36,523 nt of DNA from an uncultured Kiloniellales bacterium. GTDB lineage: Bacteria > Pseudomonadota > Alphaproteobacteria > Kiloniellales > JAKSDN01. This document shows positions 15,586-36,082 of the stretch, one piece after another (position 1 is the stretch's first letter; every line of letters begins with the position of its first letter). The notes under the pieces were generated by a model. The model was not told the DNA's origin, did no database searches, and was given only the letters and a program-made list of their open reading frames with translations. The position numbers and the translations under genes were made by a program. The stretch spans positions 24,671 to 61,193 of the forward strand of contig CAMYKD010000017.1 in NCBI GenBank assembly GCA_947258885.1. The letters run 5' to 3'.

Positions 15586-15665
15586 CCTCCTGTTCTCCCT
15601 GATCGGCCCTCGAAAGGGCATGTTCTGCCGTTGACCGGAGCGGCAGGCGCACCCATGCTCCGGCC

Positions 15666-16658
15666 ATGCTGACTGCCTGGTTCATCGGCGGCGAGATGCC
15701 GGACGGCGTGCTCCTGATCCTGTTCCTGGCGCTTGCCCTGGATGCGGCCCTGGGCGACCCGCCATGGCTCTACGGGACGGTACCACACCCGGTCGCCATG
15801 ATCGGCCGCCTGGTGACCTCGGGCGACCGCCGGCTGAACGACGAGCGTGCCGGCGAGGGCGTGCGGGTCCTGCGCGGCGCCCTGCTGACGTCGGCGGTGG
15901 TGCTGGTGAGTGCGGCGTTGGGCTGGGTGCTGGCCGGAGCGCTTCAGGGGCTGCCCGGCGGCTGGCTGGTCGAGGCGGGTTTCGCCAGCACGCTGATCTC
16001 CTTCCGCGGGCTCTATGATCGCGCGGCTTCGGTGGCCCGGGCCTTGGGCGACGGACTGGCCGAGGGCCGCGCCGCCGTGGCCCACATCGTCGGCCGCGAC
16101 CCCGACAGCCTGGACGGGCCGGGCGTGGCGCGGGCCGCGGTCGAGAGCATCGCCGAGAACTTCTCCGACGGGGTGGTGGCGCCGGCCTTCTGGTATGCGC
16201 TGCTCGGGCTGCCGGGGCTCTGCGCCTACAAGGCGGTCAACACACTGGATTCCATGATCGGTCACAAAAACCCGCGCTACCGGGCCTTCGGCCGGGCCGC
16301 GGCGCGGCTCGACGACGCCGCGAACTGGCTGCCGGCGCGCTTGGCCGGCGGGCTCGTCGTACTGGTTGCGGCTCTGCTGCCGGGAGCACGCGCAGGTAGC
16401 GCCTGGCGCACGATGCGGCGCGACGCGCCTCGGCACCGCTCGCCCAATGCCGGCTGGCAGGAGGCGGCCTTCGCCGGTGCGCTCGGCTTCGCGCTGGCCG
16501 GCCCGCGCCGCTACCACGACGAGGCGGTCGAGGATCCCTGGATGGGCGACGGCCGCAGCGACCTGGACCCGGCCGACATCCGCGCCGCCCTCAGGCTCTA
16601 CGTCGCAGCCGGCGCCCTGCTGGCCGCCATGGTTCTGGCGCTGTGGCTCCTGCTGTGA
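15666..16658 (+). CDS. cbiB: Adenosylcobinamide-phosphate synthase CbiB/CobD
   Basis: CbiB attaches (R)-1-amino-2-propanol phosphate to adenosylcobyric acid in the inner membrane. The 330-residue protein has several hydrophobic segments and the family motifs LALDAALGDPPWLYGTVPHPV near the N-terminus, RAAVESIAENFSDGVVAPAFWY in the middle, YKAVNTLDSMIGHKNPRY and LDDAANWLPARL, and a C-terminal PNAGWQEAAFAGALG stretch. The gene is single on the + strand, between two minus-strand cobalamin operons. An 80-base divergent spacer separates it from cbiX. The name cobD is used in the aerobic nomenclature. Confidence 0.95.
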   Translation: MLTAWFIGGEMPDGVLLILFLALALDAALGDPPWLYGTVPHPVAMIGRLVTSGDRRLNDERAGEGVRVLRGALLTSAVVLVSAALGWVLAGALQGLPGGWLVEAGFASTLISFRGLYDRAASVARALGDGLAEGRAAVAHIVGRDPDSLDGPGVARAAVESIAENFSDGVVAPAFWYALLGLPGLCAYKAVNTLDSMIGHKNPRYRAFGRAAARLDDAANWLPARLAGGLVVLVAALLPGARAGSAWRTMRRDAPRHRSPNAGWQEAAFAGALGFALAGPRRYHDEAVEDPWMGDGRSDLDPADIRAALRLYVAAGALLAAMVLALWLLL

Positions 16659-16665
16659 GGCGGCG

Positions 16666-16689
16666 AAAAACGGGTCGGACCCCTTTTTT
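16666..16689. terminator. Bidirectional hairpin terminator between cbiB and cobQ
   Basis: An AAAAA run is followed by GGGTC, a one-base G loop, GACCC and a TTTTTT run, with single C mismatches between the stem and the A/T runs. Flanked by A on one side and T on the other, it can end transcripts from both the converging cbiB (8 bases after its stop) and cobQ (7 bases after its stop). Its core resembles small palindromes that recur in many proteobacterial intergenic regions. Confidence 0.65.
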
Positions 16690-16695
16690 AGCGGA

Positions 16696-18168
16696 TCACG
16701 CGGCACGGGCGACCTCCAGAAGGCGATCGAGGTTCAAGTGCGCCTCCAGGTGCTCGGCGAGCGCATCGAGCGTGCGCTCGATCCCGCTCTCGTAGGCCAG
16801 GCCGCTCTCGTCGCGCTCCCGGATGCGATTGAGGAAGGCGTGGCGGAAGCCGTCGGCGGCGAAGAGACCGTGCAGATAGCAGCCGAAGACCCGGCCGTCG
16901 GCCGAAACCGCGCCCTCGGGCCGGCCGCCGAGGCGCAGCATGGGCCGCTCCAGGCCCGGGCCGCCGGTCGCGCCCACGTGCATCTCGTAGCCGCGCACCG
17001 CTGCGCCGCTCGCCACGTCCTCACCCTCGGCCGGGGCCAAAGTCTTGTCGCCGGTCAGCTCCGTGGCGATCTCGAGCAGGCCGAGGCCCGGCGCCTCGCC
17101 CGGGTCGCCCTCGACGCCGAGCGGATCGCGGATCGCGCGGCCCAGCATCTGGTAGCCGCCGCAGAGGCCCAGGAGCAGGCCGCCGCGCCGCAGGTGCGCC
17201 TTGATGTCGAGATCCCAGCCCTGCGCCCGCAGGAACGCCAGGTCGGCCAGGGTCGCCTTGGAGCCCGGCAGGACCACGAGGTCGGCGGTCCCGGGGAGCG
17301 CCTCCCCGGGCCGCACGAAGTCGACCGCCACGTCCGGTTCGGCGATCAGCGGGTCGAGATCGTCGAAGTTGGCGATGCGCGAGACGAACGGTACCGCGAT
17401 CCGGATCGCGCTGCCGCCCGATACGGACCCGGCGCGGTCAATCGCCAACGCGTCCTCCGCGGGCAGGCGCCGGGCGGCGGGAAAATAGGGTACCACGCCG
17501 AAGCACTCGAGACCGGTCTTCCGGCCTATCGCCTCGAGCCCGCCATCGAACAGGGAGACCTCGCCGCGGAACTTGTTGATGATGGTGCCGGCCAGGCGCG
17601 CCCGCTCGGCCTCGCTCAGCAGGAGGTGCGTGCCGACGATGCTGGCGATCACGCCGCCGCGGTCGATGTCGCCGATCAGCACGACCGGGACTTGCGCGGC
17701 CTCGGCGAAGCCCATGTTGGCGATGTCACCGTCGCGCAGGTTGACCTCCGCGGGGCTGCCCGCACCCTCGACCAAGATCAGGTCCGCCCCCTCGCTGAGG
17801 CGCTGAAAGCTCTCCAGGACGCTGGGCAGCAACTCGCGCCTGAGGTTCTGGTATTCGCGCGCCTGTGCGTTGCCTCGGACGCGCCCTTGCACGATGACCT
17901 GGGCACCGACATCGCACTGCGGCTTCAGCAACACGGGGTTCATGTCGACCGAGGGTGCCAGCCCGCAAGCGCGCGCCTGCAGCGCCTGGGCGCGGCCGAT
18001 CTCGCCGCCGTCGGCGGTGACCGCGGCGTTGTTGGACATGTTCTGCGGCTTGAAGGGGCGCACCTTCAGGCCGCGCCGCGAATAGGCCCGGCCGAGCCCG
18101 GCGGCGAGCAGCGACTTGCCGACGTCCGAGCCGGTGCCCTGCAGCATGATGGCGGCGGCCGTGCTCAA
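16696..18168 (-). CDS. cobQ: Cobyric acid synthase
   Basis: CobQ/CbiP amidates side chains b, d, e and g of adenosylcobyrinic acid a,c-diamide, using glutamine and ATP. The protein has an N-terminal dethiobiotin-synthetase-like ATPase domain ([18 protein letters not shown] near residues 8-25, [14 protein letters not shown]) and a C-terminal type I glutamine amidotransferase domain with the nucleophile Cys in [13 protein letters not shown] and a late His in YLHGLF. The preferred start is TTG at 18168. It overlaps the cobO stop as TTGA and gives the common family start [11 protein letters not shown] and 490 residues. The ATG at 18147 would remove seven residues. It is the last gene of the riboswitch-led operon. 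Confidence 0.95.
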
Positions 18169-23607: not shown

Positions 23608-24135
23608 TCAAGCAGGCGTTTTGAGGGCGAGCGGCAGGCCGGCCGTCATGAACAGGACCGACTGTGCGGCAGTTGCGATCGCCTGGTGCAGGCGTCCGGC
23701 ATGGTCGACGAAAGCCCGGGTCAGCGCGCCTTCCGGCACGATGCCCAGGCCGACTTCGTTGGACACGAAGACGACCGGACCCGCAAGGCCCGGCAGGGCC
23801 GCGACAAGACTCTGGGTTTCCGTTTCGACGTCACGGTCTGCGCCCAGCAGGTTGGAGAGCCACAGGGTCAGGCAATCGACCAGCACCGCGCCGTCGGACC
23901 TGGCCGCGCCACGAAGCGCGCCGACTAGGTCGAGTGGCTCCTCGAGGGTCTGCCAGCGTGCGCCGCGCCGCGCTTGGTGCCGGCGGATCCGCTCGGCCAT
24001 CTCATGGTCGCCCGCCTCGGCGGTCGCGATGTAGACGCAAGCGCCCGGCTGGCCCTCGACCAGCGCCTCGGCATGGCGGCTCTTGCCCGAACGGGCGCCG
24101 CCGAGCATCAGGGTCACGGGGGGCAGGGCGTTCAT
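23608..24135 (-). CDS. cobP: Adenosylcobinamide kinase / guanylyltransferase
   Basis: CobP (CobU in enterics) phosphorylates adenosylcobinamide and then transfers GMP to it, preparing for lower-ligand attachment. The 175-residue protein has the P-loop GGARSGKS (12-19), the probable GMP-accepting His in RRHQARRGARW (His53), VLVDCLTLWLSNLL and VSNEVGLGIVP. The length is standard. Its ATG overlaps the S41 protease stop as ATGA, which ties the unusual upstream genes to the cobalamin operon at the level of translation. Confidence 0.95.
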   Translation of the reverse strand: MNALPPVTLMLGGARSGKSRHAEALVEGQPGACVYIATAEAGDHEMAERIRRHQARRGARWQTLEEPLDLVGALRGAARSDGAVLVDCLTLWLSNLLGADRDVETETQSLVAALPGLAGPVVFVSNEVGLGIVPEGALTRAFVDHAGRLHQAIATAAQSVLFMTAGLPLALKTPA

Positions 24136-24959
24136 GGCGTGGTTCCGCCGGCCGGCAGCGGTCGGTCGGGTACGAGACCGCCGGCCAGCGTCTCGCCCGG
24201 CACCTCGACCCGCTCGGCTGGAAGCAGTAGGCGCCAGTTCTGGTCGATCGCCACGACGCGCAGCAGATAGTCCTTGCCGACGGTCCGCCGGCCGGCCAGT
24301 TCCGCGCCGGCGTAGCGGCGCAGGAGCGCCGCCAATATCTCGCCGCTGCTCGCGGTCTCCGGCCCGACCAGGACGGTCAGGGCCCGGGCAGCGACCGGCG
24401 TGCCGTTGCCCGGGATCGCCACCGGTCGCCGGCCACTACCGTCGACCAGATAGAGCGCGTCGGGCAGAGCGCCGGTGAACAGGGCGGCAACCCGCAGCAT
24501 GCGCCCGAAGTCGCCGCCACGGTTGTCGCGCAAGTCGAGCACGAGACCTTGGCCGAGTTGCAGGTCGGCCAGGGCGGCGCGCAGCTCCCACTCGACCTTG
24601 CGGCCGAACCGCTCGAGGGCAACGACCGTCCGCCCGTCGCTCGCCTGCGTATGGCCCCCGAGCGACGCGCGCGTCGTGACCCAGCGGATCGTGTCCGTGT
24701 CGGGATGATCCCGCCGCTGGAGACGCGCCCGCCCGTCGCCCCCGGCGACGATCCGCCGGGCCGCGCAGAGTAGGTCCGTACCGCAACGGCCGAGTGCTTC
24801 GGCCGTCACTCCCTCGGTTGCCGGACCATGGGCTTCCACTGCTTCCAGCAAGCGCGCGACAGCGCCCTCACCCGCGGCGACCGCGGGTGCGACGAGCACG
24901 ACTGCCGCCGCGGCGGAAAGCCTAGTGGCAGTACCCGATTGCGCCCACCATGGTGGCAC
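24132..24959 (-). CDS. Short exported S41-family (C-terminal processing type) peptidase, B12-operon associated
   Basis: This 275-residue protein carries the S41 core: LVLDLRDNRGGDFG (about 139-152), VLVGPETASSGEILAALL with the Ser-x-x-Glu pattern (probable nucleophile Ser204) and TVGKDYL with the general-base Lys229, a spacing normal for Ser/Lys S41 enzymes. No PDZ domain is seen. A hydrophobic N-terminus (residues 13-30) suggests export. The GTG at 24959 is preferred because an AGGAG lies seven bases upstream; a GTG at 24980 is an alternative. Either start lies inside the 3' end of the propeller gene, and the stop overlaps cobP as ATGA, so the protease is embedded in the B12 operon. No cobalamin role is known for this family; processing of an envelope protein is a guess. 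Confidence 0.75.
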   Translation of the reverse strand: MPPWWAQSGTATRLSAAAAVVLVAPAVAAGEGAVARLLEAVEAHGPATEGVTAEALGRCGTDLLCAARRIVAGGDGRARLQRRDHPDTDTIRWVTTRASLGGHTQASDGRTVVALERFGRKVEWELRAALADLQLGQGLVLDLRDNRGGDFGRMLRVAALFTGALPDALYLVDGSGRRPVAIPGNGTPVAARALTVLVGPETASSGEILAALLRRYAGAELAGRRTVGKDYLLRVVAIDQNWRLLLPAERVEVPGETLAGGLVPDRPLPAGGTTP

Positions 24960-26106
24960 CCCAAGGCTCCTCGCCGACACCGTCGATCATCTTGACGACC
25001 TTGCGCGCGCGGGTATCGATCACCGCAACCTTCCCGGCCTCGCTGAGCGCAACATAAAGCTTCCTGCCGTCGGGCGTGGTGACACCGGTCTCCGGCGTGC
25101 CGGGCAGGGCGATTTCACCGGCGTTTTTCATGCCGACCAGGTCGAGCAGCACAGCCTTGTCCTCGCCGCGGCTGATGACGAAGGCCGTGGAGTCGAACCA
25201 GCCGGTATTGACCCCGGTCATATCGGCTCCGCCCGGCAGGGTCGCCACGACCTCGAGCGAGGCGGTCGAGATGATCGAGACGCTGCGCTCGCCGTTGTTG
25301 GGCACCAGCATGAAGCGGCCGTCGGCGGTGCCGTAGGCCCGCCACGGCAACTCGCCCAGCTGGATGTCCTTCACCTTGCTTTGGCGTTGCAGGTCGATCA
25401 CCGCCAGGGTGTTGCCCTCGCCGTGGGCTGCGAAGCCGAGACGTCCGTCGGCCGTGCCGGTCACGCTGACGATGCCCTGGAACTCCGCCGAAGCATCGTG
25501 TCCGGAGGCGGCGAGCGGGGTCGGCTCGGCCACGGAGATTTCGTTCACGACCCCGGCCTTCGCGACGTCGACCACACTGATGTGGTCGGCGCCCAGGTTG
25601 GCGACGTAGATCAGCGTTCCGTCCGGGCTGAAGGTCAGGTTGTGCGGCTCGATCAGGCCCGTGACCCGGGCGATTTCACGGACCTCGGCGAGCGACACCA
25701 GCGAAACGGTGCCGGCGCCGATGTTGCCGACTGCGAGCAGCGCGCCGTCCGGGCTCAGCGCCATGTGCTCGGGTGTGTCGCCGAGCTTGATCGTAGCTTC
25801 GACGGCGAGCGTCTTAAGGTTGACGACCGAGATGGTGTCGTCCTCGGTGTTGCTGGCGACGAGCTTGGCCAGGGTTTCGGCAACGACCACCTGGTGCGGC
25901 ACCTTGCCGACCGGCACACGGACCACGACCTCGTCCTTGACCGTGTCGATGATCGCGACGTCCGCCGAGGCACGGTTCGGCACGTAGACGTAACGCCCGA
26001 CATCTTCTAGCGCCGTAGCCCCGCCGGACCAGCCGGCCACGACCGCCGCCACGGCGGCCGGCAGAGCAAATGACAACCTGCGTAGAATGGACCTGAAACA
26101 CGACAT
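24922..26106 (-). CDS. Exported YncE-like (YVTN repeat) beta-propeller, first gene of the B12 riboswitch operon
   Basis: The 394-residue protein has a Sec signal (Arg/Arg N-region, hydrophobic core, cleavage near residue 33) and then about seven repeats of the YVTN/YncE kind. They recur as YVYVPNRASADVAIIDT, LVASNTEDDTISVVNL, LLAVGNIGAGTVSLVSL, IYVANLGADHISVVDV and MLVPNNGERSVSIIST. It should fold as a periplasmic seven-bladed propeller. The C-terminus is Gly-Tyr-Cys-His, with the only obvious Cys in the mature chain. The ATG at 26106 is preceded by GGGAGG at seven bases; in-frame upstream ATG codons lie within the leader. The gene directly follows a B12 riboswitch and overlaps the protease gene. 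Such propellers bind diverse ligands, so a corrinoid or metal function is inference from regulation only. Confidence 0.85.
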   Translation of the reverse strand: MSCFRSILRRLSFALPAAVAAVVAGWSGGATALEDVGRYVYVPNRASADVAIIDTVKDEVVVRVPVGKVPHQVVVAETLAKLVASNTEDDTISVVNLKTLAVEATIKLGDTPEHMALSPDGALLAVGNIGAGTVSLVSLAEVREIARVTGLIEPHNLTFSPDGTLIYVANLGADHISVVDVAKAGVVNEISVAEPTPLAASGHDASAEFQGIVSVTGTADGRLGFAAHGEGNTLAVIDLQRQSKVKDIQLGELPWRAYGTADGRFMLVPNNGERSVSIISTASLEVVATLPGGADMTGVNTGWFDSTAFVISRGEDKAVLLDLVGMKNAGEIALPGTPETGVTTPDGRKLYVALSEAGKVAVIDTRARKVVKMIDGVGEEPWGATMVGAIGYCH

Positions 26107-26112
26107 GGGCAG

Positions 26113-26159
26113 CCCTCCCGTTTCAAACACATGACCCATGCCATTGCGAAACGGGAGAG
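26113..26159 (-). promoter_or_regulatory. Shine-Dalgarno-sequestering hairpin (probable riboswitch expression platform)
   Basis: On the minus strand CTCCCGTTTC (26157-26148) pairs perfectly with GAAACGGGAG (26124-26115) across a 23-base loop, and two further pairs extend the stem. The 3' arm contains the GGGAGG ribosome binding site of the propeller gene, seven bases before its ATG. When formed, the hairpin should block translation. It lies about 75 bases downstream of the B12 aptamer, as expected for translational control. Confidence 0.7.
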
Positions 26160-26235
26160 ACATGCCTGGAAGCGGCATGCAAGTGCCCCCTTTCCGCCGG
26201 TTCGCCCCGCCCGACGGCTTCACAAAGGCGCGTGC

Positions 26236-26402
26236 AACGGCAGGTCTCCTGACTTGCGGATCCCGGCTTCGCGCCCTGCCTTCCCGGTTACCCAGTGGCT
26301 CCTACGGCGGCGCGGGCCATCCGCTCACAGTTGCGGGGGCAGTCAGGGCCTTGGCGCCTAGGCACCGCACCCTGTTCCCTATTGTTCCCCGAAGGAAACC
26401 GT
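26236..26402 (-). ncRNA. Adenosylcobalamin riboswitch (B12 element)
   Basis: Read on the minus strand, the leader contains the conserved pieces in the right order: a GGGAACAGGGTGCGGTGCC region (26377 down to about 26359), GACTGCCCCCGCAACTG (26344-26328), the GCCACTG box (26299-26293), GGGAAGGC, and the B12 box AAGTCAGGAGACCTGCC (26255-26239). These define the cobalamin aptamer core, which binds adenosylcobalamin and lowers expression downstream. It precedes the propeller-S41-cobP-cobW-cobN-cobO-cobQ operon by about 130 bases. Both outer limits are approximate. Confidence 0.96.
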
Positions 26403-26485
26403 TGCGTAGCAGAGACTAAGACAGATTCGCAGCGGAATACAGGCAAATCGCGCCGCCTTGCGAATACGTGACTGGGTGCGATCGG

Positions 26486-26537: not shown

Positions 26538-27233
26538 TCAGTCCCCGAGAACCTCTCGGACCATCCGTTCCAGGCGCGGCACGTCGCGGACGACCAGCGA
26601 ACCGTGGCGACGCTCCACGAGCCCCTGCCGGGACAGCTCGGTCAGTTCGCGGGTCACGGCTTCCCGGTGCGTCGAGATCCGGCTGGCAATATCCGCGTGC
26701 GTCGGAGACGGCACGATCACCGCTGTCACATCGTCGACCATATGGTCGTGCGCCAAGCGAAGCAGTTCGGCGTGAATCCGGTTCTTGACCGCAAGCGTGC
26801 TGAACTCGAACACCCGTTCGCTCAGGGCCCTGACCTGCCGGGTCAGCTGCTTCAACATGATGGCGTTTGCGCTGGGATGGTTTTCCAGGACCTCCCAGAA
26901 ACAGGATGCCGGCATGGCGGCAACATAGGACGGTACGAGAGCCTCGATGGTCGCGCAGCGCGGCTCGCCGTCGATCGCGGCATACTCGCCGAACACGTCG
27001 CCGGCCGGAATATCCCGAAAGGTCACCTCCTTGCCCTCGAGGGAGTAAGTGATGGCGCGCACCTCGCCCTCCACGACGAAGTAGACGTCGCGGGTCTCGT
27101 CATGAAAATGGATGATTTGCTCGTGCGCCTGATAGTGCCGCCAGCTGCAACGTTTGGCCAGAGCCTCGAGATCGGCCTCGCGCAGACCGTGCAACAGTCC
27201 GATGCCTTGTAGAGAGTTCGCGGCTACCAGCAT
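26538..27233 (-). CDS. Crp/Fnr-family transcription regulator
   Basis: This 231-residue regulator has an N-terminal cyclic-nucleotide-binding fold (about 10-125, with GDVFGEYAAIDGEPRCATIEAL at the ligand loop), a dimerisation helix, and a C-terminal winged helix-turn-helix (about 165-225). The recognition helix reads T-H-R-E-A-V-T-R-E-L, with the Arg-Glu...Arg pattern of CRP rather than the Glu...Ser-Arg of FNR. No N-terminal Cys cluster for an oxygen-sensing iron-sulfur centre is visible. An AGGGAGG lies before the ATG. It is monocistronic and faces away from the redox island. Its targets are unknown; an Fnr-like palindrome at 30999 is one candidate, although the recognition helix does not specially predict it. 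Confidence 0.9.
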   Translation of the reverse strand: MLVAANSLQGIGLLHGLREADLEALAKRCSWRHYQAHEQIIHFHDETRDVYFVVEGEVRAITYSLEGKEVTFRDIPAGDVFGEYAAIDGEPRCATIEALVPSYVAAMPASCFWEVLENHPSANAIMLKQLTRQVRALSERVFEFSTLAVKNRIHAELLRLAHDHMVDDVTAVIVPSPTHADIASRISTHREAVTRELTELSRQGLVERRHGSLVVRDVPRLERMVREVLGD

Positions 27234-28591: not shown

Positions 28592-28813
28592 GGAAAGAGC
28601 CTCCCGGCATCGCTTCGCGGCCACGGCCGCGGGGCACCGGGCATCTTACGGCTCGCGGGCCGGTGTGCGCCAGAGAGGATCGGCTCGGCGGTCTTTCGGA
28701 TGCGTTCGGATCTTGGCCCGGGTCAATGCTTTTCTTGGGGCTTTGGCACGATTTGTTAGCTGATTTCGAGTACAGTTGGATCCACCCCACATACAGGGGG
28801 CGAGGTGCCGCCA

Positions 28814-29788
28814 ATGCTGTTGCGCATGACGAGATGGCCGAGTTCGTCGGCCGCGCCCTGCTGGATCATGGCGCTGGTCCTTGGCCTTGCCCATGTCGCC
28901 ACAGCGTGGGCGCAGACGATCCAGAACCCGAGGCGAATCGCCGAGGGGCCGGCTGGGCAGCTATTGGTCTCCGACCGATCCGGATCCATCGTCGCGGTAG
29001 ACCGCAGCAGCCTGCAGCCGCTTTGGAGCTTTCAGCTGCCGGCGGAGGGCGCCCCCTTCGGGTTGGCGACGTCGAACCGGCTGGTCTTCGTGGGCAACAC
29101 CGGGACCGGGAATGTCGAGGTCTATCGGCTCACGGGGGCCCGGGGCGGGAGCAAGACACTCCGTTTCGCCTACAATCTCGGCGACTCTTCCCCAGGTGAG
29201 ACGGGCACCATCCAAAACCCGATCAGCATAGATACGGACCGCAAAGAGAAGCTCGTCTTCGTTCTCGACGGCTCGGCGAAGAAGGTCAAGGTCTTCGAAC
29301 AGAAGGGCGCGTTCCTTTACGACTTTGCCCCCGTGGACCAGGACGGTGTACTGCTCAGCCCGGTATCGCTGGAGGTGGACGAGTTGCGCGGAGAGGTGCT
29401 GGTTGCCGACTATGGCGACCCCAGCGGCGGCTTCGCTGCGAACGCGCCGGCGCGAATTCTCATCTATGGCTACGACGGCACACTGCTCGACCAGATCGAC
29501 GGCAGCGGCTTCCTTGGAAGCAACTTCGTCTTCAGGCGGGTGCAGGGCATGGCGGCCAGCGCGGACGGCCGGATCTTCGCGGCCGATCCCCTGGGCAGCC
29601 GGATTCTCGTCTTCGATCGGAGCAACGGCGAGCTCAAGGACGCTCTGGGTACCCAGGGCTCGGAGCCGGGACAGCTCATGATCCCGACGGATGTCCTTCT
29701 CGACCAGGACAGCGGCGATCTGTTCATCGTCAACAACCGGGGCGGCCGCAGGGTCGAAGTCATACGGGGCGCGGGAGGATCACGATGA
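28814..29788 (+). CDS. Exported NHL-repeat beta-propeller, partner of a pentaheme cytochrome
   Basis: The 324-residue protein has an N-terminal signal peptide (cleavage near Ala-Trp-Ala-Gln, about residue 34) and repeated NHL-type blades, each with a hydrophobic strand, a short turn and a V-F/Y or V-D element: LLVSDRSGSIVAVD, LVFVLDGSAKKVKVFEQ, VLVADYGDP, IFAADPLGSRILVFD and LFIVNNRGGRRVEVI. It should be a six-bladed periplasmic propeller for protein contacts. The ATG at 28814 has GAGG eight bases upstream; a GTG at 28805 is an alternative. Its stop overlaps the pentaheme cytochrome start as ATGA, implying that the two are made together and probably work together. A degraded relative of this gene lies at 32305-32466. 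Confidence 0.82.
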   Translation: MLLRMTRWPSSSAAPCWIMALVLGLAHVATAWAQTIQNPRRIAEGPAGQLLVSDRSGSIVAVDRSSLQPLWSFQLPAEGAPFGLATSNRLVFVGNTGTGNVEVYRLTGARGGSKTLRFAYNLGDSSPGETGTIQNPISIDTDRKEKLVFVLDGSAKKVKVFEQKGAFLYDFAPVDQDGVLLSPVSLEVDELRGEVLVADYGDPSGGFAANAPARILIYGYDGTLLDQIDGSGFLGSNFVFRRVQGMAASADGRIFAADPLGSRILVFDRSNGELKDALGTQGSEPGQLMIPTDVLLDQDSGDLFIVNNRGGRRVEVIRGAGGSR

Positions 29789-30888
29789 TGGGAACCAGAT
29801 GGGTCGCCGCCATCTCGCCGCTCGCGTGCGCTTGGCTTTTGCTTTTGCCGCCGGCCGCCCAGGCGCAGGTCGGTGGCATGACCTGCATCGAATGCCACGG
29901 CGCTCCTCTCGCCGGGGGCTTTCACGGCGGCTTCAGGAACCTGGTCGGCCTGACGGACGCCGAGATGGAGATCGTTTGCCTCAGCTGCCACGACGGCAGC
30001 TACACGAACCCGCAGGGCGTCCCGGCGCCCGAGGCCGCCGTTCACCAGAACAAGAACCCCGGCGCGGGTCGTGACGAATACGGGGACTTCAAGGCCAGCT
30101 GCCTCGACTGCCACAACAATCACTCTCCCGTGCTCGCCGGCGACGGGACCACGAGCGTCGTCACGATCAGCCCCACGCCCGACCCGGCCGTCGACGAGGC
30201 GCACGACGTGCAACCCACGACCGAGACCTTCTTGCTCGACGAGAGCTCGATCATTCTCTCCGTCGCGCACCCCATCGAGATCGTCGACGACACTGGCAGC
30301 GTCACCTTTGTCGAGGGTGTCGACTATCAGATCGAGACCGTTAACGGCGATCCGAGGAGAGTCAGGATCCTGCCTGGCGGCGCGATCAGGGCCGTGGCAC
30401 CGCTCACGGTGTTCGCCCATGATTACGAGTTCGCGGCCAACCAGCAGCTGCTTGGCCGCGAGGTCGTCGAGCGGAACTCGACCGACGGACTGGCCCGCAT
30501 CCGCAGGCCGATCATCGTCGACCCCAACGGCGACGACAATGGTTCGGGCAACCAACGCTTCGAGGACGATTTCCAGAGCGGTTGGGCCTGCAGCAACGGC
30601 ATCCCGGACGACCCGGCCTGCCTTGCAGACGACGTCCGAGAGCTGGTCTTCCACGACCAAGTCACCGAGAACGGGACGAATTGGGTGCCGACGATCGTGA
30701 GCTTCAACCCGGCCGTAACCACTGGTCCCCGCAACGGCGCCTGTAATTCCTGCCACACCCGGACCAACCACCACCGGCGCAACGACCTGGGCGAGTTCGG
30801 CGGCGGCGACGACCACAACCACAATGTCGCCAGGCCGTGCGACGACTGCCACAACCACAAGGACGGCTGGGTGAACAAGGGCGGCTAA
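29785..30888 (+). CDS. Exported pentaheme c-type cytochrome
   Basis: This 367-residue protein has a signal peptide (residues 1 to about 28, ending Ala-Gln-Ala) and five CxxCH haem-binding motifs: CIECH (34-38), CLSCH (65-69), CLDCH (106-110), CNSCH (about 320-324) and CDDCH (about 352-356). Several extra His residues near them could be axial ligands. A 200-residue haem-free middle section (about 120-310), acidic and beta-rich, separates three N-terminal from two C-terminal haems. The layout resembles doubled-CxxCH proteins found with NHL propellers. It is coupled to the upstream propeller gene by an ATGA overlap, with GGGAGG before the ATG. It should act in the periplasm or at the outer surface in electron transfer; the partner is unknown. 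Confidence 0.88.
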   Translation: MMGTRWVAAISPLACAWLLLLPPAAQAQVGGMTCIECHGAPLAGGFHGGFRNLVGLTDAEMEIVCLSCHDGSYTNPQGVPAPEAAVHQNKNPGAGRDEYGDFKASCLDCHNNHSPVLAGDGTTSVVTISPTPDPAVDEAHDVQPTTETFLLDESSIILSVAHPIEIVDDTGSVTFVEGVDYQIETVNGDPRRVRILPGGAIRAVAPLTVFAHDYEFAANQQLLGREVVERNSTDGLARIRRPIIVDPNGDDNGSGNQRFEDDFQSGWACSNGIPDDPACLADDVRELVFHDQVTENGTNWVPTIVSFNPAVTTGPRNGACNSCHTRTNHHRRNDLGEFGGGDDHNHNVARPCDDCHNHKDGWVNKGG

Positions 30889-30998
30889 CGCACGCCGCGG
30901 CATCGTGCCCTGAGATCCCTGAACGCCGCGGGCTGAAGACCCGGCCCGTCGGCGCTGGGTTCGGGTGGCCGGTTGCGACGCCGCATCCGGGCTCGGTT

Positions 30999-31041
30999 TT
31001 TGACTTAAGTCAAAGCGAGATCCGGTGCGGCCATTTAGATA
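30999..31041 (+). promoter_or_regulatory. Fnr/Crp-like palindrome with class II promoter spacing upstream of the NHL lipoprotein gene
   Basis: TTTGACTTAAGTCAAA (30999-31014) is a perfect 16-base palindrome containing the Fnr-like TTGAC-N4-GTCAA. A TAGATA hexamer at 31036-31041 lies just where a -10 box should be if the palindrome is centred at -41.5, putting +1 near 31048 and leaving a leader of about 130 bases before the lipoprotein start. This is a class II activator arrangement, typical of low-oxygen or nitric-oxide control. The regulator is not identified. Confidence 0.55.
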
Positions 31042-31179
31042 AAGGTGGTGGGGCCAATCGAGAGGCAGTGTTTCGGTTGGAGATGTGGAAAATTAAGACA
31101 TATATGGGCAAGGTGGGCCCGCAGCGGCCAGGCAAGTGGGGCCGCTCTTGCCGAATCGAGTAAGGGAGTCGTTGTAGTG

Positions 31180-32298
31180 ATGCGGTTGCTGCAAATCCTC
31201 GGATCGAATGCCAGCCGGCGGACCTTGGCTGTTGCCGGTGTCCTCTTTCTCGCGCTGGTTGGCTGCGCCACTCGGGATGAACCGCCGGAAACCGTGGACG
31301 TATCAGAACTCGTGTGGCCCCGGCCACCCGAGCAGCCTCGCGTTAAGTTCCTCAACAGCTTTAGTTTTCGAGCTGACGTGCAACCCGACCTAGGGACAGA
31401 ACAGCTGCTGGGCGCCCTGCTGGGCGCACGAGAGGACCGGGGTGAGCGGCTGAAGAAACCCTACGGTGTTCACGCGGACAAGGATGGACGGATTTACGTC
31501 GCCGACACCGGCTGGGGCAAGGTCGTGGTCTTTGACCCTGTCAACGAGAAGTTCTCCTTCTGGGGCACCGAAGGGAAGGGACAGCTGACCAAGCCGGCCG
31601 GCATTACCTCGGACAGCAACGGTAGGGTTTACGTCACGGACGTATGGGACAAGCGGCTGATCGTGTATGGCCCGGACGGCGGTTTTCTCTCCGCCATGGG
31701 CCGGAAAGGAGAGCTCGAGTCGCCCGTGGGCGTTGCCATCGACGAGAGCCTGGGGCGGATATACGTCGTCGATTCCAAGAAGCACAGCATCGCCGTCTTC
31801 GACATGAGCGGCACCATGGTCGCGACCATCGGAGAGCGGGGTAAGGACCCCGGCCAGTTCAACTTCCCCACCAACCTTGCCTTGGACCGGAACGGGAAGC
31901 TCTACGTGATGGACACCATGAACTTCCGGGTTCAGGTGCTCGAATCCGACGGCAGCGTCGTGAACACATTCGGGGAGGTTGGCGACGGCCTGGGGCAGTT
32001 CGCACGCCCCAAGGGGATCGCGGTCGATTCCGAGGGGCACATCTACGTGGTGGATGCGGCCTTCAACAACTTCCAGATCTTCGATTCCGAAGGCCGGCTC
32101 TTGCTCTTCGTCGGCTCGATCGGCCACAATCCCGGCCAGTTCTGGCTGCCGGCCGGAGCCTACATCGACGGACAGGACCGGATCTACGTGGCCGACCAGT
32201 ACAACTTCCGGATACAGGTGTTCCAGTACCTTGGGGAAGACGAAGCCGCAACGGCCCCGGCGGATTCCGAGGCGGCCGCGGCACCGGAGCAGCAATGA
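31180..32298 (+). CDS. NHL-repeat beta-propeller lipoprotein
   Basis: The 372-residue protein has a lipoprotein signal ending in the lipobox Leu-Val-Gly-Cys (Cys29), so it should be membrane-anchored. After a linker come about six regular NHL blades of 40-45 residues, each with the G-R/K-I/V-Y-V-x-D core: GRIYVADTG, GRVYVTDVW, GRIYVVDSKK, GKLYVMDTMNFRVQV, GHIYVVDAAFNNFQI and DRIYVADQYNFRIQV. A short Ala/Pro/Glu-rich tail ends it. The ATG at 31180 gives the correct signal; a GTG one codon earlier has slightly better spacing to GGGAG. The frame stays open upstream without meaning. It lies between the pentaheme and tetraheme genes and is probably a scaffold for them. Confidence 0.88.
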   Translation: MRLLQILGSNASRRTLAVAGVLFLALVGCATRDEPPETVDVSELVWPRPPEQPRVKFLNSFSFRADVQPDLGTEQLLGALLGAREDRGERLKKPYGVHADKDGRIYVADTGWGKVVVFDPVNEKFSFWGTEGKGQLTKPAGITSDSNGRVYVTDVWDKRLIVYGPDGGFLSAMGRKGELESPVGVAIDESLGRIYVVDSKKHSIAVFDMSGTMVATIGERGKDPGQFNFPTNLALDRNGKLYVMDTMNFRVQVLESDGSVVNTFGEVGDGLGQFARPKGIAVDSEGHIYVVDAAFNNFQIFDSEGRLLLFVGSIGHNPGQFWLPAGAYIDGQDRIYVADQYNFRIQVFQYLGEDEAATAPADSEAAAAPEQQ

Positions 32299-32304
32299 CG
32301 TGGC

Positions 32305-32466
32305 GCTCGTCCTGCACATAGCCCATACCGGCTCGCCGCGGTCATAGATGATCCGGACTCCGAAAGATCCGGATCGAACGTTGCGGCGAACAACAACGGC
32401 CCGCAGCCGATTTGGAGCTTCCGGTTGCCGGCGCAAAGGCCCGCGGACTCTCCGGCACTCGACTAG
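32305..32466 (+). pseudogene. Remnant of an NHL propeller gene paralogous to 28814-29788
   Basis: In the frame ending with TAG at 32464, codons from about 32365 read ERSGSNVAANNNGPQPIW and then SFRLPA. The propeller gene at 28814 reads DRSGSIVAVDRSSLQPLW and then SFQLPA. Weaker similarity runs upstream (SPYRLAA against NPRRIAE). The bases also match (shared GATCCGGATC, GCAGCCG, TTTGGAGCTT and TGCCGGCG). Only part of the first blades remains, with no start codon and an early stop. It lies just upstream of the tetraheme gene, in the same relation as the intact propeller to the pentaheme gene. Confidence 0.65.
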
Positions 32467-32552
32467 AGACCGTGGATTTTGTATGGTTTATCGAGACCTT
32501 GGAGCGAAATAGCGATCCCGTTGTGACAAAACTGCTTCGAAATGGAGGGCCA

Positions 32553-33305
32553 ATGAACCGTGGGGCCGAGTGGCTTGCCCGCCATACGGCAGGGTCTCGG
32601 CGTCGCGTATGGCGGCGGGTCGTGAACGCCGCGCGGCCCGAGCTTTCGCGTTGCGGCCGGCTGACCGTCATCGGGCTCTGTCTCATAATCATGGCGCCGG
32701 ACCGGCCATCCCGAGCGGCCAGCGCGGAGGACCTGGGGCAACCGACAACGACTGCCCTGCTCGATAGCGATAGCCAAGCCACGCAGACCAAGATACAGCA
32801 GACCCGCCACGACCTGTCGTTTGAAGGCGAGCCATCCTGCAGCTATTGCCACTTGGCCCAGGAGCCCCCAGAGCCCGTCAAGCCGCAATGGGACGGCCGG
32901 GAAGGCGCCGCCACCTACCCCACCTACAGCGAGGCCGACCTGGAACACGTGACGGAATGGCAGCCGCAGGGGGTTTCGCTGGTCTGCCTGTCGTGCCACG
33001 ACGGCACCCTCGGCCCCGACCGGGTCGTCGACACCGCCACAGGCGCTCTTGGTTGGAACCCGATACGCGCTGTGATCGGCACGCTTTTCGCGAGCGACCA
33101 TCCGATATCGGTGGCTTATGCTCGTGCGGGACCCGGCGGTTTCAATGCGGTTCACCGCGGGCGTGTGCGCTCCCTGCCGCTATACGGGGACGGTCAGCGG
33201 CTCGAATGCGCATCATGCCACAACGCCCATTTCGAAACCTTCGGTGTCTTCCTGCGGGCCGCCGCGGCGCAAGGCACGTTGTGCAGGACCTGCCACATCA
33301 AATAG
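32553..33305 (+). CDS. Exported tetraheme c-type cytochrome
   Basis: This 250-residue protein has an unusually long, Arg-rich N-region (residues 1-35), then a hydrophobic segment (about 37-49) that is either a signal peptide or a membrane anchor. Four CxxCH motifs follow: CSYCH (96-100), CLSCH (145-149), CASCH (219-223) and CRTCH (244-248). The VCLSCHDG block matches the second haem site of the pentaheme protein, so the two are probably related. The ATG at 32553 is chosen because GGAGGG lies just upstream and the 47 codons before it hold no signal. A haem-free region of about 70 residues separates haems 2 and 3. It is expected to be periplasmic or surface exposed. Confidence 0.85.
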   Translation: MNRGAEWLARHTAGSRRRVWRRVVNAARPELSRCGRLTVIGLCLIIMAPDRPSRAASAEDLGQPTTTALLDSDSQATQTKIQQTRHDLSFEGEPSCSYCHLAQEPPEPVKPQWDGREGAATYPTYSEADLEHVTEWQPQGVSLVCLSCHDGTLGPDRVVDTATGALGWNPIRAVIGTLFASDHPISVAYARAGPGGFNAVHRGRVRSLPLYGDGQRLECASCHNAHFETFGVFLRAAAAQGTLCRTCHIK

Positions 33306-33460
33306 GGACCGCGACCCGTCCCGCTCGTCACTCGGTCATCCCCTCGGGGGGCAGCTCGAGACATAACGAGCCCGGGATCGGGGTCTTGTGCCAAGGCTCG
33401 AAGATGATGACCCGTTTTCCCGAGCGTATTGGAACGCCCGGGGCGCTGGCGGCGCTTGTC

Positions 33461-33498
33461 CGATGACCCCACAGCCGAGGCGAGCCTCTGGGTCATCG
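33461..33498. other. Strong nested hairpin downstream of the tetraheme gene
   Basis: CGATGACCC and GGGTCATCG form a perfect nine-pair outer stem. Inside it, GAGGC-GA-GCCTC forms a second perfect stem. There is no T-run, so it may be a Rho-independent-like pause, an mRNA 3' end stabiliser or a protein binding site. Confidence 0.45.
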
Positions 33499-33718
33499 TC
33501 AATCGGTGAGCTTTGGTAGTGCGGCGGGTTGTTGTGCTTGGGGGGCGTTTGCCGTGCCGCGGCCGACGCGGTTCGAACCGGTACGGGCTGTGCAGGGCCT
33601 GCGAGGGCCCTGCTCGCTCCATGTGATCGGCGCCTCGACGTGAAGAGGGACGGGGCGGGTCCGCAAGAGACCGGTTGGACGGCCGAGCGGCGGTCCTGAA
33701 TCGCGTGGCGAACCCCAC

Positions 33719-33762
33719 CCAGAAAAAGAAAAGGGGAAAGGAAGTTTTCACTCCCTTTCCCC
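33719..33762 (-). terminator. Rho-independent terminator of the hexaheme cytochrome gene
   Basis: On the minus strand GGGGAAAGG (33762-33754) pairs perfectly with CCTTTCCCC (33741-33733) across a 12-base loop, followed at once by a T-rich run (TTTTCTTTTTCT). It lies about 60 bases after the hexaheme stop codon. Confidence 0.75.
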
Positions 33763-33823
33763 CCAAAGGCGGGTTCAGACGTTACGACGATATCACGCTA
33801 TTGTCGTGACGCCGTTCTCGACT

Positions 33824-36082
33824 CTACCGGCGAGCCATAAGATCGTCGTGCTCGTCATCGTCGTCATCGTCGTCGTAGTCGTCATCGTCGTCGTAGTCGT
33901 CATCGTCGTCGTAGTCATCGAGCATCTCGAGGTAGGCACCGATCTGGTCGATGTCGGAATACGGCAGACACCCGAGGAACATCATCGGATCCTCGTCGTA
34001 GATCGCATCCGCGATCTCCTCGGCATCTTCGCCGCGGACGTCCTCGTCGACGAAACCGCCGCTGGCGTCGATCCCGTGGCACCCGGCACAGGCGGTGACG
34101 TAGCGCTTCATGCCCGATACCGGCTGAGAGTTGAGGTATTCCGAGATCTCGAAGATCTGCTCGTCGGACAACTTCCCCTTGAGGGACATCATCTCGGGCA
34201 CGCCGAACGGGAAGGGGCTCTCGGCCTCGTCCTCGTCGTCCTCGTGGCCACCGTATTTGTCCTCGGGGTGTTCGTCGTCCTCCTCCTCGTCGATCGCACC
34301 AGGATTGCCGTAGATCGCCGCGACGATCGAGCAGGTCCTGGCCCCGGGCACCTTCCTGAAAGGCGCCGGATCGTCGGTGAACGGGTCGCCGTGACAGGAC
34401 GCACAGTTGACAACGTAGAGCTCTTCGCCACCGGTGACCGGCTCCTGGCCCTGACCCGACAGCTTCACCGGCACCGTTCCCTCGTCGGGATCGTTGCTGA
34501 CGATGTCGAGCTGGCCTTCATCGGGCGGCGGTGCCTCCGCGACGGGCGTGTAGCTCAGCACCACGTCCACCGAGACGCCGGGATCGATCGGGCCCGGCAG
34601 CCCAGGCGCCGACACGATCGCGAAGGTGGTGCTGCCCGTCAGGTTGAGCGCGGTGACCTCGAGCACGGCGGTGCCGGCGTTCTTGACGGTAACCGTCCGC
34701 TCCTCGGTATCAGCGATGTAGACCATGCCGAAATCGACGAGCAAGGGCGCCACGTCGATATCCGCCATGCCCGCAGTGATCGTGGCCGTGGCCGTGGCCG
34801 TATCGCTCAACATGCCGTCGCTCACCGTCAAGGTGACGGTGAAGGTTCCGGCGGCCATGTAGGCATAGCTCGGGCTGACGCCCGTTCCGGTGCCGACGCC
34901 ATCGCCGAAGTCCCACGCGTAGGTGAGCATATCGCCGTCAGGATCCGACGAGCCCGACCCGCTGAAGGTCACCGCGACCCCGACGGTCCCGCTGTACGGG
35001 CCGCCGGCATCGGCCACCGGTGCGTCGTTGACCGCGTTGACCGTGATGGTCACCGTCGCGGCGGTCGCGGAGTCCACCGTGCCGTCGTTGGCGTTGTAGG
35101 TGAAGCTGTCGGAGCCGTTGAAGTCGGTGTTCGGCGTGTAGGTGAACGAGCCGTCGGAGTTCAGCGTCAGGCTGCCGTTCGACACGCTGGTCACCAGCAC
35201 GGCGGTCAGCGGATTGCTCTCCGCGTCGGTGTCGTTGGCGAGCACGCCGGGCGCCGCCACGGTCAGCGTCACGTCCTCGTCGGTCGTGTAGCTGTCGTCG
35301 ACCGCCACCGGCGCGGTGTTGCCGCCGCCACCACAGTCTATGACATCGGCGGCGTCGTCGAGCAGGTCGCCGTCGTTGTCCAGGCCGGTCGCACCGAATT
35401 TGTTCTCATGGCGCGGCGCGGCTGCCCCATTACAGGCGTCCGCGGGAATGTTCGCATGCCCCGCCGGGTTCGCGTAATAGGCCGGCTGAATGTGTTCACC
35501 GGCTGGCGTGGCCGGGTCGCCGGCATGGCAACCACTGCACGTCCCGACAGGCACGCTCGGGCTGTTCTCGTGGTGCTCCCGCAGTCCGGCGGCGGACCCG
35601 CAGTTCGCGGTGTTGAAGCCCGGCGGAAGGGCGCCGGGGGCGCACGCGCCCGCTCCCAACGCGTCCGGGGGCCGGCCGTGACAGCCCAGGCAGGAGACCG
35701 GGTCAAGACCGGCTCCGCCGCCCGACAGCCCGGTGTAAACGGGATAGAACGGCCCCGACTGGTGGCACGTGGCGCAATCGCCGCTGACCATCGCGATGTG
35801 CCCGCCCATCAAGGTATCACCCCAGGCCGTGCCGTCCTTTCGCGACGTGTAGAGGCCGGAATTGAAGTCGCCGTGGCAAGTCGCGCAGTTGCCGGACGCA
35901 GGCGAGGGATCCGGGCCGCCTGTCGACCACTGCGTGTAGGCGCCGGACGGGGGTGTCCAAGCGATCAGAGCCGCGAGGCCGACAAGCGCGGGCAGCAACG
36001 CGCGAGTCGCGCTCCACCTTCGCGCCCCGCTAGGACTCCGCGACGGTCGCGCCGCAGATCTGTGGATGAAAAAGCCGATCAT
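33824..36082 (-). CDS. Large exported hexaheme cytochrome with cadherin-like, PKD and HYDIN-like modules and poly-Asp tail
   Basis: This is a 752-residue protein. A long basic N-region and hydrophobic segment (about 28-43) form the signal. Four haem sites lie in the N-terminal third: CATCH (66-70), CATCH (103-107), CLGCH (131-135) and CSGCH (182-186). [10 protein letters not shown] calcium-loop-like stretch (about 235-243) comes next. Three beta modules follow: a cadherin/VCBS-like repeat (about 257-352, [13 protein letters not shown] and [10 protein letters not shown]), a PKD domain (about 353-438, [12 protein letters not shown] and YAWDFGDG) and a HYDIN/ASH-like domain (about 441-545). Two mono-haem cytochrome domains follow, with CASCH (560-564) and CAGCH (665-669). 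The chain ends in an Asp-rich tail (721-750). The ATG at 36082 has GGGAG eight bases upstream. It is probably a surface electron carrier; this architecture is not one I recognise. Confidence 0.85.
33860..33913. repeat. Three perfect tandem copies of an 18-base unit encoding Tyr-Asp5
   Basis: The + strand unit GTCGTCATCGTCGTCGTA occurs three times without change, flanked by partial copies. On the coding minus strand each unit reads Tyr plus five Asp in the C-terminal tail of the hexaheme protein. Perfect identity of codons suggests recent expansion by slippage. Confidence 0.9.

What the first reader, a model, noticed from the sequence alone, without database searches (positions are those of the whole stretch)
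24132..26402. B12 riboswitch whose first two genes are an exported YVTN propeller and an S41 protease
The riboswitch core is unmistakable. The first two genes it controls encode envelope proteins not known in cobalamin metabolism, yet they are joined by overlaps to cobP-cobW-cobN-cobO-cobQ. Under B12 limitation the cell would make a periplasmic propeller and a PDZ-less S41 protease together with the cobalt chelatase. Possible roles are corrinoid or cobalt capture, or proteolytic activation of an uptake receptor. The riboswitch and gene order are seen directly; the roles are inference.
Basis: partly seen in the sequence, partly recalled or inferred. Interest (0 to 1): 0.78.

Follow-up and report, generated by a model that had tools for sequence, protein, structure and literature searches.

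The report
B12-controlled propeller and protease pair
Upstream of the vitamin B12 genes of an uncultured bacterium, a B12-sensing RNA switch stands before genes for a probably secreted propeller-shaped protein and a partner protease; the arrangement recurs in many relatives, which suggests an undescribed way of handling cobalt or B12 outside the cytoplasm.

Summary
A cobalamin riboswitch (RF00174, 113.7 bits; 26222-26418, minus strand), the only one found in this genome, precedes propeller, S41, cobP, cobW, cobN, cobO, cobQ. The association is not incidental. I found 27 alphaproteobacterial genomes with the pair. The propeller adjoins the S41 gene in all 26 readable loci, and a B12 riboswitch precedes the propeller in 17 of 25. 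In five of those no cob gene was found beside the pair. In Candidatus Manganitrophus (another phylum) a 39% identical propeller, with no S41 annotated nearby, follows a B12 riboswitch and an OprB-type porin beside cob genes.

The propeller model is eight-bladed and closest to heme-d1 propellers. His71/His114/His155 are conserved in all copies but one, and the C-terminal Tyr-Cys-His in all. The exception also lacks S41, a nearby riboswitch and cob genes. The S41 protein keeps Ser and Lys in 26 of 27, and lacks PDZ and the usual Gln.

Best reading: an envelope cobalt carrier, or a corrinoid-binding protein, made when B12 is low, with a dedicated protease. Conservation and switch position are shown; ligand and protease role are inferred. 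Against: eight loci lack the switch, five of them followed by a copper chaperone gene.

The parts
26222..26418 (-). Cobalamin riboswitch aptamer (RF00174)
   Evidence: cmscan 113.7 bits, E 5.7e-28, full length; only RF00174 match in the assembly
26115..26157 (-). Hairpin that would bury the propeller ribosome-binding site (10-bp perfect stem CTCCCGTTTC/GAAACGGGAG); probable translational expression platform
   Evidence: longest inverted repeat; folded; z -1.73, 14 of 200 shuffles fold as well, so weak by itself
24922..26106 (-). Eight-bladed YncE/YVTN propeller, 394 aa, probably secreted; His71 (25894-25896), His114 (25765-25767), His155 (25642-25644), C-terminal Tyr392-Cys393-His394
24132..24959 (-). 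S41 peptidase without PDZ domain, about 275 aa; Ser204 (24348-24350), Lys229 (24273-24275); start GTG 24959 (AGGAG upstream) or GTG 24980; gene overlaps the propeller gene
23608..24135 (-). cobP (CobU-type adenosylcobinamide kinase/guanylyltransferase)
   Evidence: PF02283 202.8 bits, NF004469 206.1 bits
22562..23611 (-). cobW
   Evidence: TIGR02475 526.8 bits
18800..22558 (-). cobN (cobaltochelatase large subunit)
   Evidence: TIGR02257 1661.8 bits
18165..18800 (-). cobO (corrinoid adenosyltransferase)
   Evidence: PF02572 225.7 bits, NF004637
16696..18102 (-). cobQ (cobyric acid synthase), last gene before the opposite-strand cobD
   Evidence: NF001989 590.5 bits
15666..16658 (+). cobD/cbiB, opposite strand
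   Evidence: PF03186 333.8 bits, TIGR00380

Best explanation
The pair is a B12-repressed envelope cassette for cobalt supply. Shown from sequence: a cobalamin riboswitch directly precedes the propeller gene; the S41 gene overlaps the propeller gene; the pair is conserved as a unit; nearly all of its genomes tested have a CobN-type chelatase gene. Inferred: when B12 is low the riboswitch lets the propeller be translated by freeing its ribosome-binding site, and the S41 gene follows by translational coupling. The propeller is secreted and binds Co2+ (or another divalent metal) at a His71/His114/His155 site at the mouth of its central channel, with a second site at the conserved C-terminal Cys-His, much as the zinc chaperone AztD does, and hands it to a cobalt importer so that CobW and CobN can load the corrin ring. 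The S41 protease, catalytically competent by its Ser and Lys but without a PDZ domain, is a dedicated partner that probably clears or processes the propeller or its client.
For: Conserved pair: 27 alphaproteobacterial genomes (10 of 38 relatives, own included; 14 further loci among the 23 of 63 with E<1e-30; 3 more); propeller beside S41 in 26 of 26 readable (the contig of one ends inside S41). Reverse direction: of 7 genomes with the propeller (E<=1e-40) among 385, 6 have S41 next to it. Riboswitch directly upstream in 17 of 25 readable loci. In five of these (L060, L061, L063, G162, G504) none of the window's cob genes was found in the fetched flanks, so the pair itself is the regulated unit. 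A CobN/Mg-chelatase family (PF02514) match in 21 of 22 genomes tested (21 of the 27 with the pair, plus G016) against 46 of 115 of the class (Fisher p 5e-7, not corrected for kinship, different E limits, and the family includes BchH-type chelatases). His71/114/155 in 23 of 24 aligned rows and in 4 further sequences; Tyr-Cys-His end in 24 of 24 rows and in 4 further. The exception, L117, lost all three His and has no S41, no riboswitch within its 20 kb and no cob genes there. AztD is an eight-bladed propeller with a three-His pore site and a C-terminal His ligand (PMC6689063 section 7). Metal theme: a PCu(A)C copper chaperone gene follows the pair in 5 of 5 readable loci of one clade. In G162 and G504 another riboswitch lies just before a CbiM cobalt importer gene. 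Ser204 and Lys229 in 24 of 24 aligned S41 rows and 2 further.
Against: No metal or corrinoid binding was measured. The AztD likeness is by geometry only: its NCBIfam model does not match, profile comparison with three AztD sequences gives 15.6% probability, and by my reading the AztD triad sits one blade further round. Eight readable loci (L052-L058, G263) have no riboswitch before the pair, and in five of them copper, not cobalt, is the neighbouring theme. The S41 copy of G263 is cut off before the catalytic Ser, by decay or by a faulty assembly join. No cobalt importer was found among the Pfam-scanned genes of the window's operon. The heme-d1-like fold fits a corrinoid ligand at least as well as a bare metal.
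Confidence: 0.4

Rival explanations
1. The propeller binds a corrinoid or a cobalt-tetrapyrrole, not bare metal: a soluble d1-type propeller used like BtuG or NirF to capture or carry corrinoids (for salvage or retention) when B12 is low, with His71 as the axial ligand to cobalt.
For: Best structural matches of the model are the heme-d1 domain of cytochrome cd1 (Z 39.5, rmsd 2.8, 348 aligned), above designed or WD40 eight-bladed propellers (Z up to 34.8); NirF 34.3, NirN 33.5. Profile match to NirF-type proteins 98.6% probability, E 1e-15, with His71 on their conserved LSH histidine. BtuG structures appear weakly in the profile search (8blw E 4e-5, 8p97 1.4e-4; named as BtuG complexes in PMC10404256), and BtuG is itself a propeller linked to corrinoid riboswitches (PMC6143338 passages). 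In Manganitrophus the propeller is paired with an OprB-type porin behind the riboswitch.
Against: BtuG has seven blades and a lipoprotein signal, this has eight and none evident. The pair genomes are B12 makers by their chelatase genes. NirF and NirN are no better by Z than unrelated eight-bladed propellers. The PCu(A)C neighbour clade points to metal.
Confidence: 0.33
2. One reading: the S41 enzyme is the effector and cleaves an uptake receptor or another envelope protein when B12 is low; the propeller is its adaptor, as NlpI or LbcA are for Prc and CtpA.
For: The pair is together in 26 of 26 readable S41 loci; S41 lacks the PDZ substrate-binding domain, so an outside adaptor is plausible; Ser and Lys are kept in 26 of 27.
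Against: The propeller without an annotated S41 within 6 kb is kept behind a B12 riboswitch in Manganitrophus, with the histidines and the Tyr-Cys-His end intact, so its function does not seem to need the protease. No receptor gene was seen to travel with the pair. In G263 the protease is broken or cut.
Confidence: 0.12
3. The pair serves general metal or redox upkeep of the envelope (for example copper handling with PCu(A)C) and came under B12 control secondarily.
For: Clade without riboswitch and with PCu(A)C adjacent; the own-genome locus is near other propeller and CXXCH cytochrome genes.
Against: In the propeller tree riboswitch loci occur on several branches including the Nitrospirota copy, and the loci without riboswitch form mainly one clade (L051-L058, support 86/87, below the tool's star), so loss of B12 control is the simpler reading, though deep forks are weakly supported and long branches meet.
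Confidence: 0.1
4. Incidental: the pair merely sits between a riboswitch and the cob genes.
For: The pair is rare: 6 of 385 genomes of the class and 2 of 398 of the phylum sample, own genome included in both.
Against: Riboswitch plus pair occurs without nearby cob genes in five genomes, and riboswitch plus porin and propeller in another phylum.
Confidence: 0.05

Closest known systems
BtuG (Bacteroides surface corrinoid-binding propeller)
   Same: Extracytoplasmic propeller linked to a corrinoid riboswitch; weak profile similarity
   Different: BtuG has seven blades, is a surface lipoprotein and pairs with BtuB; this has eight blades, no lipobox evident, and pairs with an S41 protease and cob biosynthesis genes
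NirF / NirN / NirS d1 domain (heme-d1 propellers)
   Same: Eight blades; cd1 is the closest structural match; His71 in register with the NirF-type conserved histidine; the ligand class, a modified tetrapyrrole, is akin to corrin
   Different: Sequence identity about 16%; no nir genes beside it; this genome has strong Cytochrom_D1 family genes (NirS/NirF type) on another contig
AztD (periplasmic zinc metallochaperone)
   Same: Eight-bladed propeller; three pore histidines, first spacing 43 in both; C-terminal His as ligand in AztD, conserved here
   Different: Not matched by the AztD model; single C-terminal Cys instead of a disulfide pair; triad appears one blade shifted (my reading); no ABC transporter genes in the scanned operon; B12 rather than zinc context
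CtpA/CtpB/Prc (S41 C-terminal processing proteases)
   Same: S41 core fold (Z about 19); Ser and Lys with the same 25-residue spacing as H. pylori CtpA S300/K325 (title)
   Different: No PDZ domain; the third residue (Gln, four after Lys) is present in 1 of 24 rows; an own N-terminal helical part with two Cys kept in 24 of 24 rows
PMC2770081: COG0523 subfamily 5 with WD40 propellers and znuABC, some under Zur
   Same: An earlier report of propeller genes beside a COG0523 GTPase in a metal setting (passages)
   Different: Zinc/Zur rather than B12; the CobW subfamily is treated apart; the propeller is not described further in the passages seen

Membership tests
Cobalamin riboswitch (RF00174) | Match above the curated gathering score over the whole aptamer | tested here: met
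   113.7 bits against 31.5, positions 1-189
Cobalamin riboswitch (RF00174) | Binds cobalamin and changes expression of the gene behind it | not testable with these tools
   Only a probable ribosome-binding-site hairpin was seen
YncE-like propeller (PF21783) | Score above Pfam's gathering cut-off | tested here: met
   79.8 bits against 27.1
BtuG | Seven-bladed propeller | tested here: not met
   Model shows strands for eight blades and aligns end to end with eight-bladed structures
BtuG | Lipobox with acylated Cys near the N-terminus | tested here: not met
   19 of 24 rows have no Cys but the penultimate one; the other 5 have one at residue 3, 5 or 12 with no lipobox by eye
BtuG | Encoded beside BtuB | tested here: not met
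   No TonB receptor among the Pfam-scanned genes of the window's operon; in Manganitrophus the neighbour is an OprB porin
BtuG | Binds corrinoids | not testable with these tools
   -
Heme-d1 propeller family (NirS d1 domain, NirF, NirN) | Eight-bladed propeller of this arrangement | tested here: met
   Z 39.5 to cd1, 34.3 NirF, 33.5 NirN; unrelated eight-bladed propellers reach 34.8
Heme-d1 propeller family (NirS d1 domain, NirF, NirN) | Conserved histidine that binds the tetrapyrrole iron | tested here: inconclusive
   His71 in register in the NirF-type profile alignment; the NirS-type profile alignment was blade-shifted
Heme-d1 propeller family (NirS d1 domain, NirF, NirN) | Part of heme-d1 synthesis or nitrite reduction | tested here: not met
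   Neighbours are cobalamin genes; the genome's two strong Cytochrom_D1 genes lie on another contig
AztD | NCBIfam NF038015 above cut-off (400 bits) | tested here: not met
   Absent from the listing at E<=1e-3; own genome no match
AztD | Three His from successive blades in the central pore | tested here: inconclusive
   His71/114/155, spacing 43 and 41, in 23 of 24; AztD 43 and 51; coordinates of the model were not available to measure the site
AztD | C-terminal His ligand | tested here: met
   His394 in 24 of 24; that it binds metal is not shown, and in AztD itself it is kept in 68%
AztD | Conserved disulfide Cys pair | tested here: not met
   One Cys, the penultimate residue, in 19 of 24 rows
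S41 peptidase | PF03572 domain above cut-off | tested here: met
   69.6 bits against 24
S41 peptidase | Catalytic Ser and Lys | tested here: met
   24 of 24 aligned rows, L126 and L059 too; the G263 copy is cut before them
C-terminal processing protease (CtpA type) | PDZ domain and Gln four residues after Lys | tested here: not met
   No PDZ hit; Gln in 1 of 24 rows

The most novel reading that the evidence does not exclude
An undescribed extracytoplasmic cobalt-handling device: a d1-type eight-bladed propeller that carries Co2+ or a cobalt-corrinoid by a pore histidine set and a C-terminal Cys-His, switched by B12 itself and serviced by its own PDZ-less S41 protease. It would be a periplasmic cobalt chaperone upstream of CobW/CobN, and a link between the heme-d1 propellers and B12.
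Probability: 0.3. Interest if true: 0.78.

Novelty: new variant of a known kind. Interest (0 to 1): 0.62.

Why it matters
How Gram-negative B12 makers move cobalt through the envelope is poorly known. [quoted passage not shown] the CobW passage was cut before its conclusion). A conserved propeller behind a B12 switch, with a clear histidine set, gives a specific candidate for a missing periplasmic step, and its likeness to heme-d1 propellers suggests a common way of holding tetrapyrrole or metal on an eight-bladed ring. It also names a small envelope protease family with a B12-related context.

Tried and rejected
Incidental linkage was rejected because the riboswitch precedes the pair without nearby cob genes in five genomes, and a porin plus propeller in another phylum. 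The idea that the conserved Tyr-Cys-His end is a recognition tag for the S41 protease was set aside because the end is kept in the two copies without an S41 neighbour, Manganitrophus and L117. NirS as register guide was dropped: hhalign gave a blade-shifted alignment. AztD kinship by sequence was not supported; AztD did not show among the listed fold matches, which does not exclude it. The minus-strand ORF between cobQ and cbiX (15582-16706) is an artefact of the cobD gene on the other strand. The viral fold search gave only general propeller matches. Paper searches: searches returned no paper; some searches returned one, two and one paper on other matters. They cover only the open PubMed Central library. 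The hairpin before the propeller is weak as evidence alone: z -1.73 in the window, -4.15 in L035 and -0.25 to -3.09 in the other ten of twelve stretches folded.

Rows dropped or special. Riboswitch count: of 27 loci, G006 (contig ends in S41) and L051 (124 bases upstream; its genome has no RF00174 match) are not readable; L059/G786 is counted as positive although its propeller is split over two contigs, that these are halves of one gene being my inference. The L050 propeller is split over two frames. The 24-row propeller alignment leaves out L033, L050, L059/L160 and L126, checked later; the 24-row S41 alignment leaves out L059, L126 and G263, of which G263 lacks the catalytic region. Whole-genome searches score only a few candidates per genome, so their counts are lower bounds.

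The Pfam scan of genes near the other riboswitches of these genomes covered ten chosen proteins only: two BtuF-like, two CbiM, one TonB receptor, one TauE, one without a family, one ABC ATPase and two unrelated.
Full report
What is there. On the minus strand a full cobalamin riboswitch (RF00174, 26222-26418, 113.7 bits) stands before a gene for a YncE/YVTN propeller (24922-26106), which overlaps a gene for an S41 peptidase (24132-24959 or -24980), followed closely by cobP, cobW, cobN, cobO and cobQ. cobD lies next on the other strand. It is the only RF00174 match in the assembly. Between aptamer and start codon a 10-bp inverted repeat covers the ribosome-binding site. In L036, L038 and L040 a different stem covers the start codon instead, and L035 has another ribosome-binding-site stem. 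This suggests translational control, but of twelve stretches folded only L035 and L036 clearly beat shuffled sequences.

Is the pair real and conserved? A search of 38 relatives (own genome included) with the S41 protein gave 10 genomes with a match at E<1e-60. In all nine with enough contig the order is riboswitch, propeller, S41, cobP, cobW, and the tenth begins inside S41. A scan of the genome collection with the S41 alignment gave 63 loci, 23 of them at E<1e-30 (L041-L063); 22 of these record titles are MAG titles and one, Bacterium HR39, is named as isolate HRbin39. In 22 of the 23 the propeller lies directly upstream of S41; the other contig is cut. In L050 the propeller is split over two frames and in L059 only its end is on the contig. 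Three more genomes (G162, G263, G504) came from class and phylum searches. The total is 27 genomes, with the propeller adjacent in 26 of 26 readable. In the other direction, 7 of 385 genomes of the class have the propeller at E<=1e-40 and 6 of these 7 have the S41 gene beside it. The seventh, G016, has a divergent copy (L117) followed by an AraC-type regulator gene. The pair is rare: 6 of 385 in the class and 2 of 398 in the phylum sample, own genome included.

B12 control. A riboswitch directly precedes the propeller in 17 of 25 readable loci: the window and eight relatives, L050, L062, L063, L060, L061, G162, G504 and the split G786 locus. Eight readable loci have none: L052-L058 and G263. 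In L060, L061, L063, G162 and G504 none of the window's cob genes was found in the fetched flanks (L063 has only about 1 kb downstream), so the pair is itself the regulated unit. In three Candidatus Manganitrophus plasmids (Nitrospirota) a propeller of 38-39% identity covers 90% of the query. I opened two, CP114562 and CP114554; both copies end in the same Tyr-Cys-His. In both a riboswitch of about 92 bits stands before a porin gene (OprB family by Pfam in CP114562) and the propeller, next to cobJ, cobO and cobyrinate synthase genes, with no S41 annotated within 6 kb. In CP114554 the propeller is annotated as two pieces.

Genomes that carry it. A PF02514 match (CobN and Mg-chelatase large subunits) is found in 21 of 22 tested genomes (21 of the 27 with the pair, plus G016) against 46 of 115 in a class sample. 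Fisher's test gives p 5e-7, but the genomes are related, the E-value limits differed (0.001 and 1e-100) and the family includes BchH-type chelatases, so this is only supporting. Other riboswitches in these genomes lie beside genes for BtuF-like proteins, CbiM, a TonB receptor and a TauE protein, among ten proteins scanned.

The propeller. The AlphaFold model (23 sequences, pLDDT 88.4) has strands for eight blades. The structural second look ranks the heme-d1 domain of cytochrome cd1 first (Z 39.5, 348 residues, rmsd 2.8), with NirF at 34.3 and NirN at 33.5. Designed and WD40 eight-bladed propellers reach 34.8, so only the cd1 match stands clear. Profile comparison with seven NirF-type sequences gives 98.6% probability and places His71 on their conserved histidine. 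A 2026 paper says that NirF needs two histidines, an arginine and a lysine in vivo (PMC13168839 passages); that His71 matches one of those two is my inference. His71, His114 and His155 each open the innermost strand of successive blades by my reading of the secondary structure. They are kept in 23 of 24 aligned sequences and in four others checked later (L126, L033, L160, first part of L050); the Tyr-Cys-His end is kept in 24 of 24 and in four others (L126, L033, second part of L050, L059). L061 has only four histidines in all: these three and the last residue. The exception, L117, has Leu, Phe and Gly at the three places and also lacks S41, a riboswitch or any of the window's cob genes in its 20 kb, though its genome has four riboswitches elsewhere. 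The zinc chaperone AztD, also eight-bladed, uses three pore histidines (124, 167, 218) and its C-terminal histidine (PMC6689063 section 7). The likeness is geometric, not familial.

The protease. The S41 model (pLDDT 82.5) matches CtpA, CtpB and Prc (Z about 19). Ser204, Lys229 and two cysteines are kept in 24 of 24 aligned rows; Gln four residues after Lys is present in 1 of 24. L126 and L059 keep the Ser and Lys motifs too, but the G263 copy is cut off before them, by decay or a faulty assembly join. It has no PDZ domain. In L057 and L058 no ATG, GTG or TTG lies near the start of the S41 signal sequence, and in L053-L056 the only ones lie within or after it; a CTG overlapping the propeller's stop region is a possible start. 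This is inference.

The copper side-line. In L053, L054, L055, L057 and L058 the pair is followed by a PCu(A)C copper chaperone gene, 16-36 bases after or overlapping S41 in four and 300 bases after in L053; the contig of L056 ends too soon. These loci have no riboswitch before the pair, but their genomes have one elsewhere; in G781 and G784 a BtuF-like gene lies behind it. In the tree the loci without riboswitch, L051-L058, form one clade (86/87, below the tool's star), G263 and L117 being apart; deep forks are weak and long branches meet. Loss of B12 control in that clade is the simpler reading, and a metal role is the theme common to both settings.

Mechanism. Shown from sequence: the switch, its position, the overlap, the conservation and the residues. 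Inferred: secretion, translational control, metal or corrinoid binding, hand-over to an importer, and the protease's part. I favour a cobalt carrier (0.40) over a corrinoid carrier (0.33) because of the histidine set, the C-terminal Cys-His, the metal-chaperone neighbour in one clade and the hosts' chelatase genes. The heme-d1 likeness and the porin partner keep the corrinoid reading close behind.

Print. Full-text searches of the open library for propeller, YVTN or S41 together with cobalamin and riboswitch terms found no paper. BtuG is the nearest described case (PMC6143338 and PMC10404256, passages only). Subscription papers were not searched.

Noticed in passing
window 15666-16658 (+) and 14569-15621 (-): cobD/cbiB sits on the opposite strand between cobQ and a CbiX-family chelatase gene; the cluster thus has genes for both an early (CbiX) and a late (CobN) type of cobalt chelatase.
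   Followed up: partly
window 28805-36169: A cluster with NHL-repeat propellers (28805-29788, 31045-32298) and a CXXCH-motif cytochrome gene (32412-33305); the ORF at 33824-36169 (-) ends in a long Asp-rich run.
   Followed up: no
window 26538-27233 (-): A Crp/Fnr-type regulator gene directly upstream of the riboswitch on the same strand; kept next to the operon in G001 and G002.
   Followed up: no
G000:C123:908-1990 and 3300-4478: The same genome has two strong Cytochrom_D1 family genes (NirF and NirS type), so it holds at least three d1-like propellers.
   Followed up: partly
L117:9404-10639: Divergent propeller copy without S41 or nearby riboswitch that has lost all three ring histidines but keeps the Tyr-Cys-His end, followed by an AraC-type regulator gene: a natural contrast case.
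   Followed up: yes
L053-L058, S41 start region: No ATG, GTG or TTG fits upstream of the S41 signal sequence; a CTG overlapping the propeller's stop codon is a possible start.
   Followed up: partly
L119:1-1046 (-): The S41 copy of G263 breaks off before the catalytic Ser and runs into unrelated sequence: decay or an assembly join.
   Followed up: partly
L158:1123-3832: A second B12 riboswitch in G787 lies before a TauE/SafE-domain frame with about 450 further residues and no other Pfam match: possible cobalt transporter.
   Followed up: no
L123:5872-7085: The Manganitrophus propeller in CP114554 is annotated as two overlapping genes, whereas CP114562 has it in one piece.
   Followed up: no
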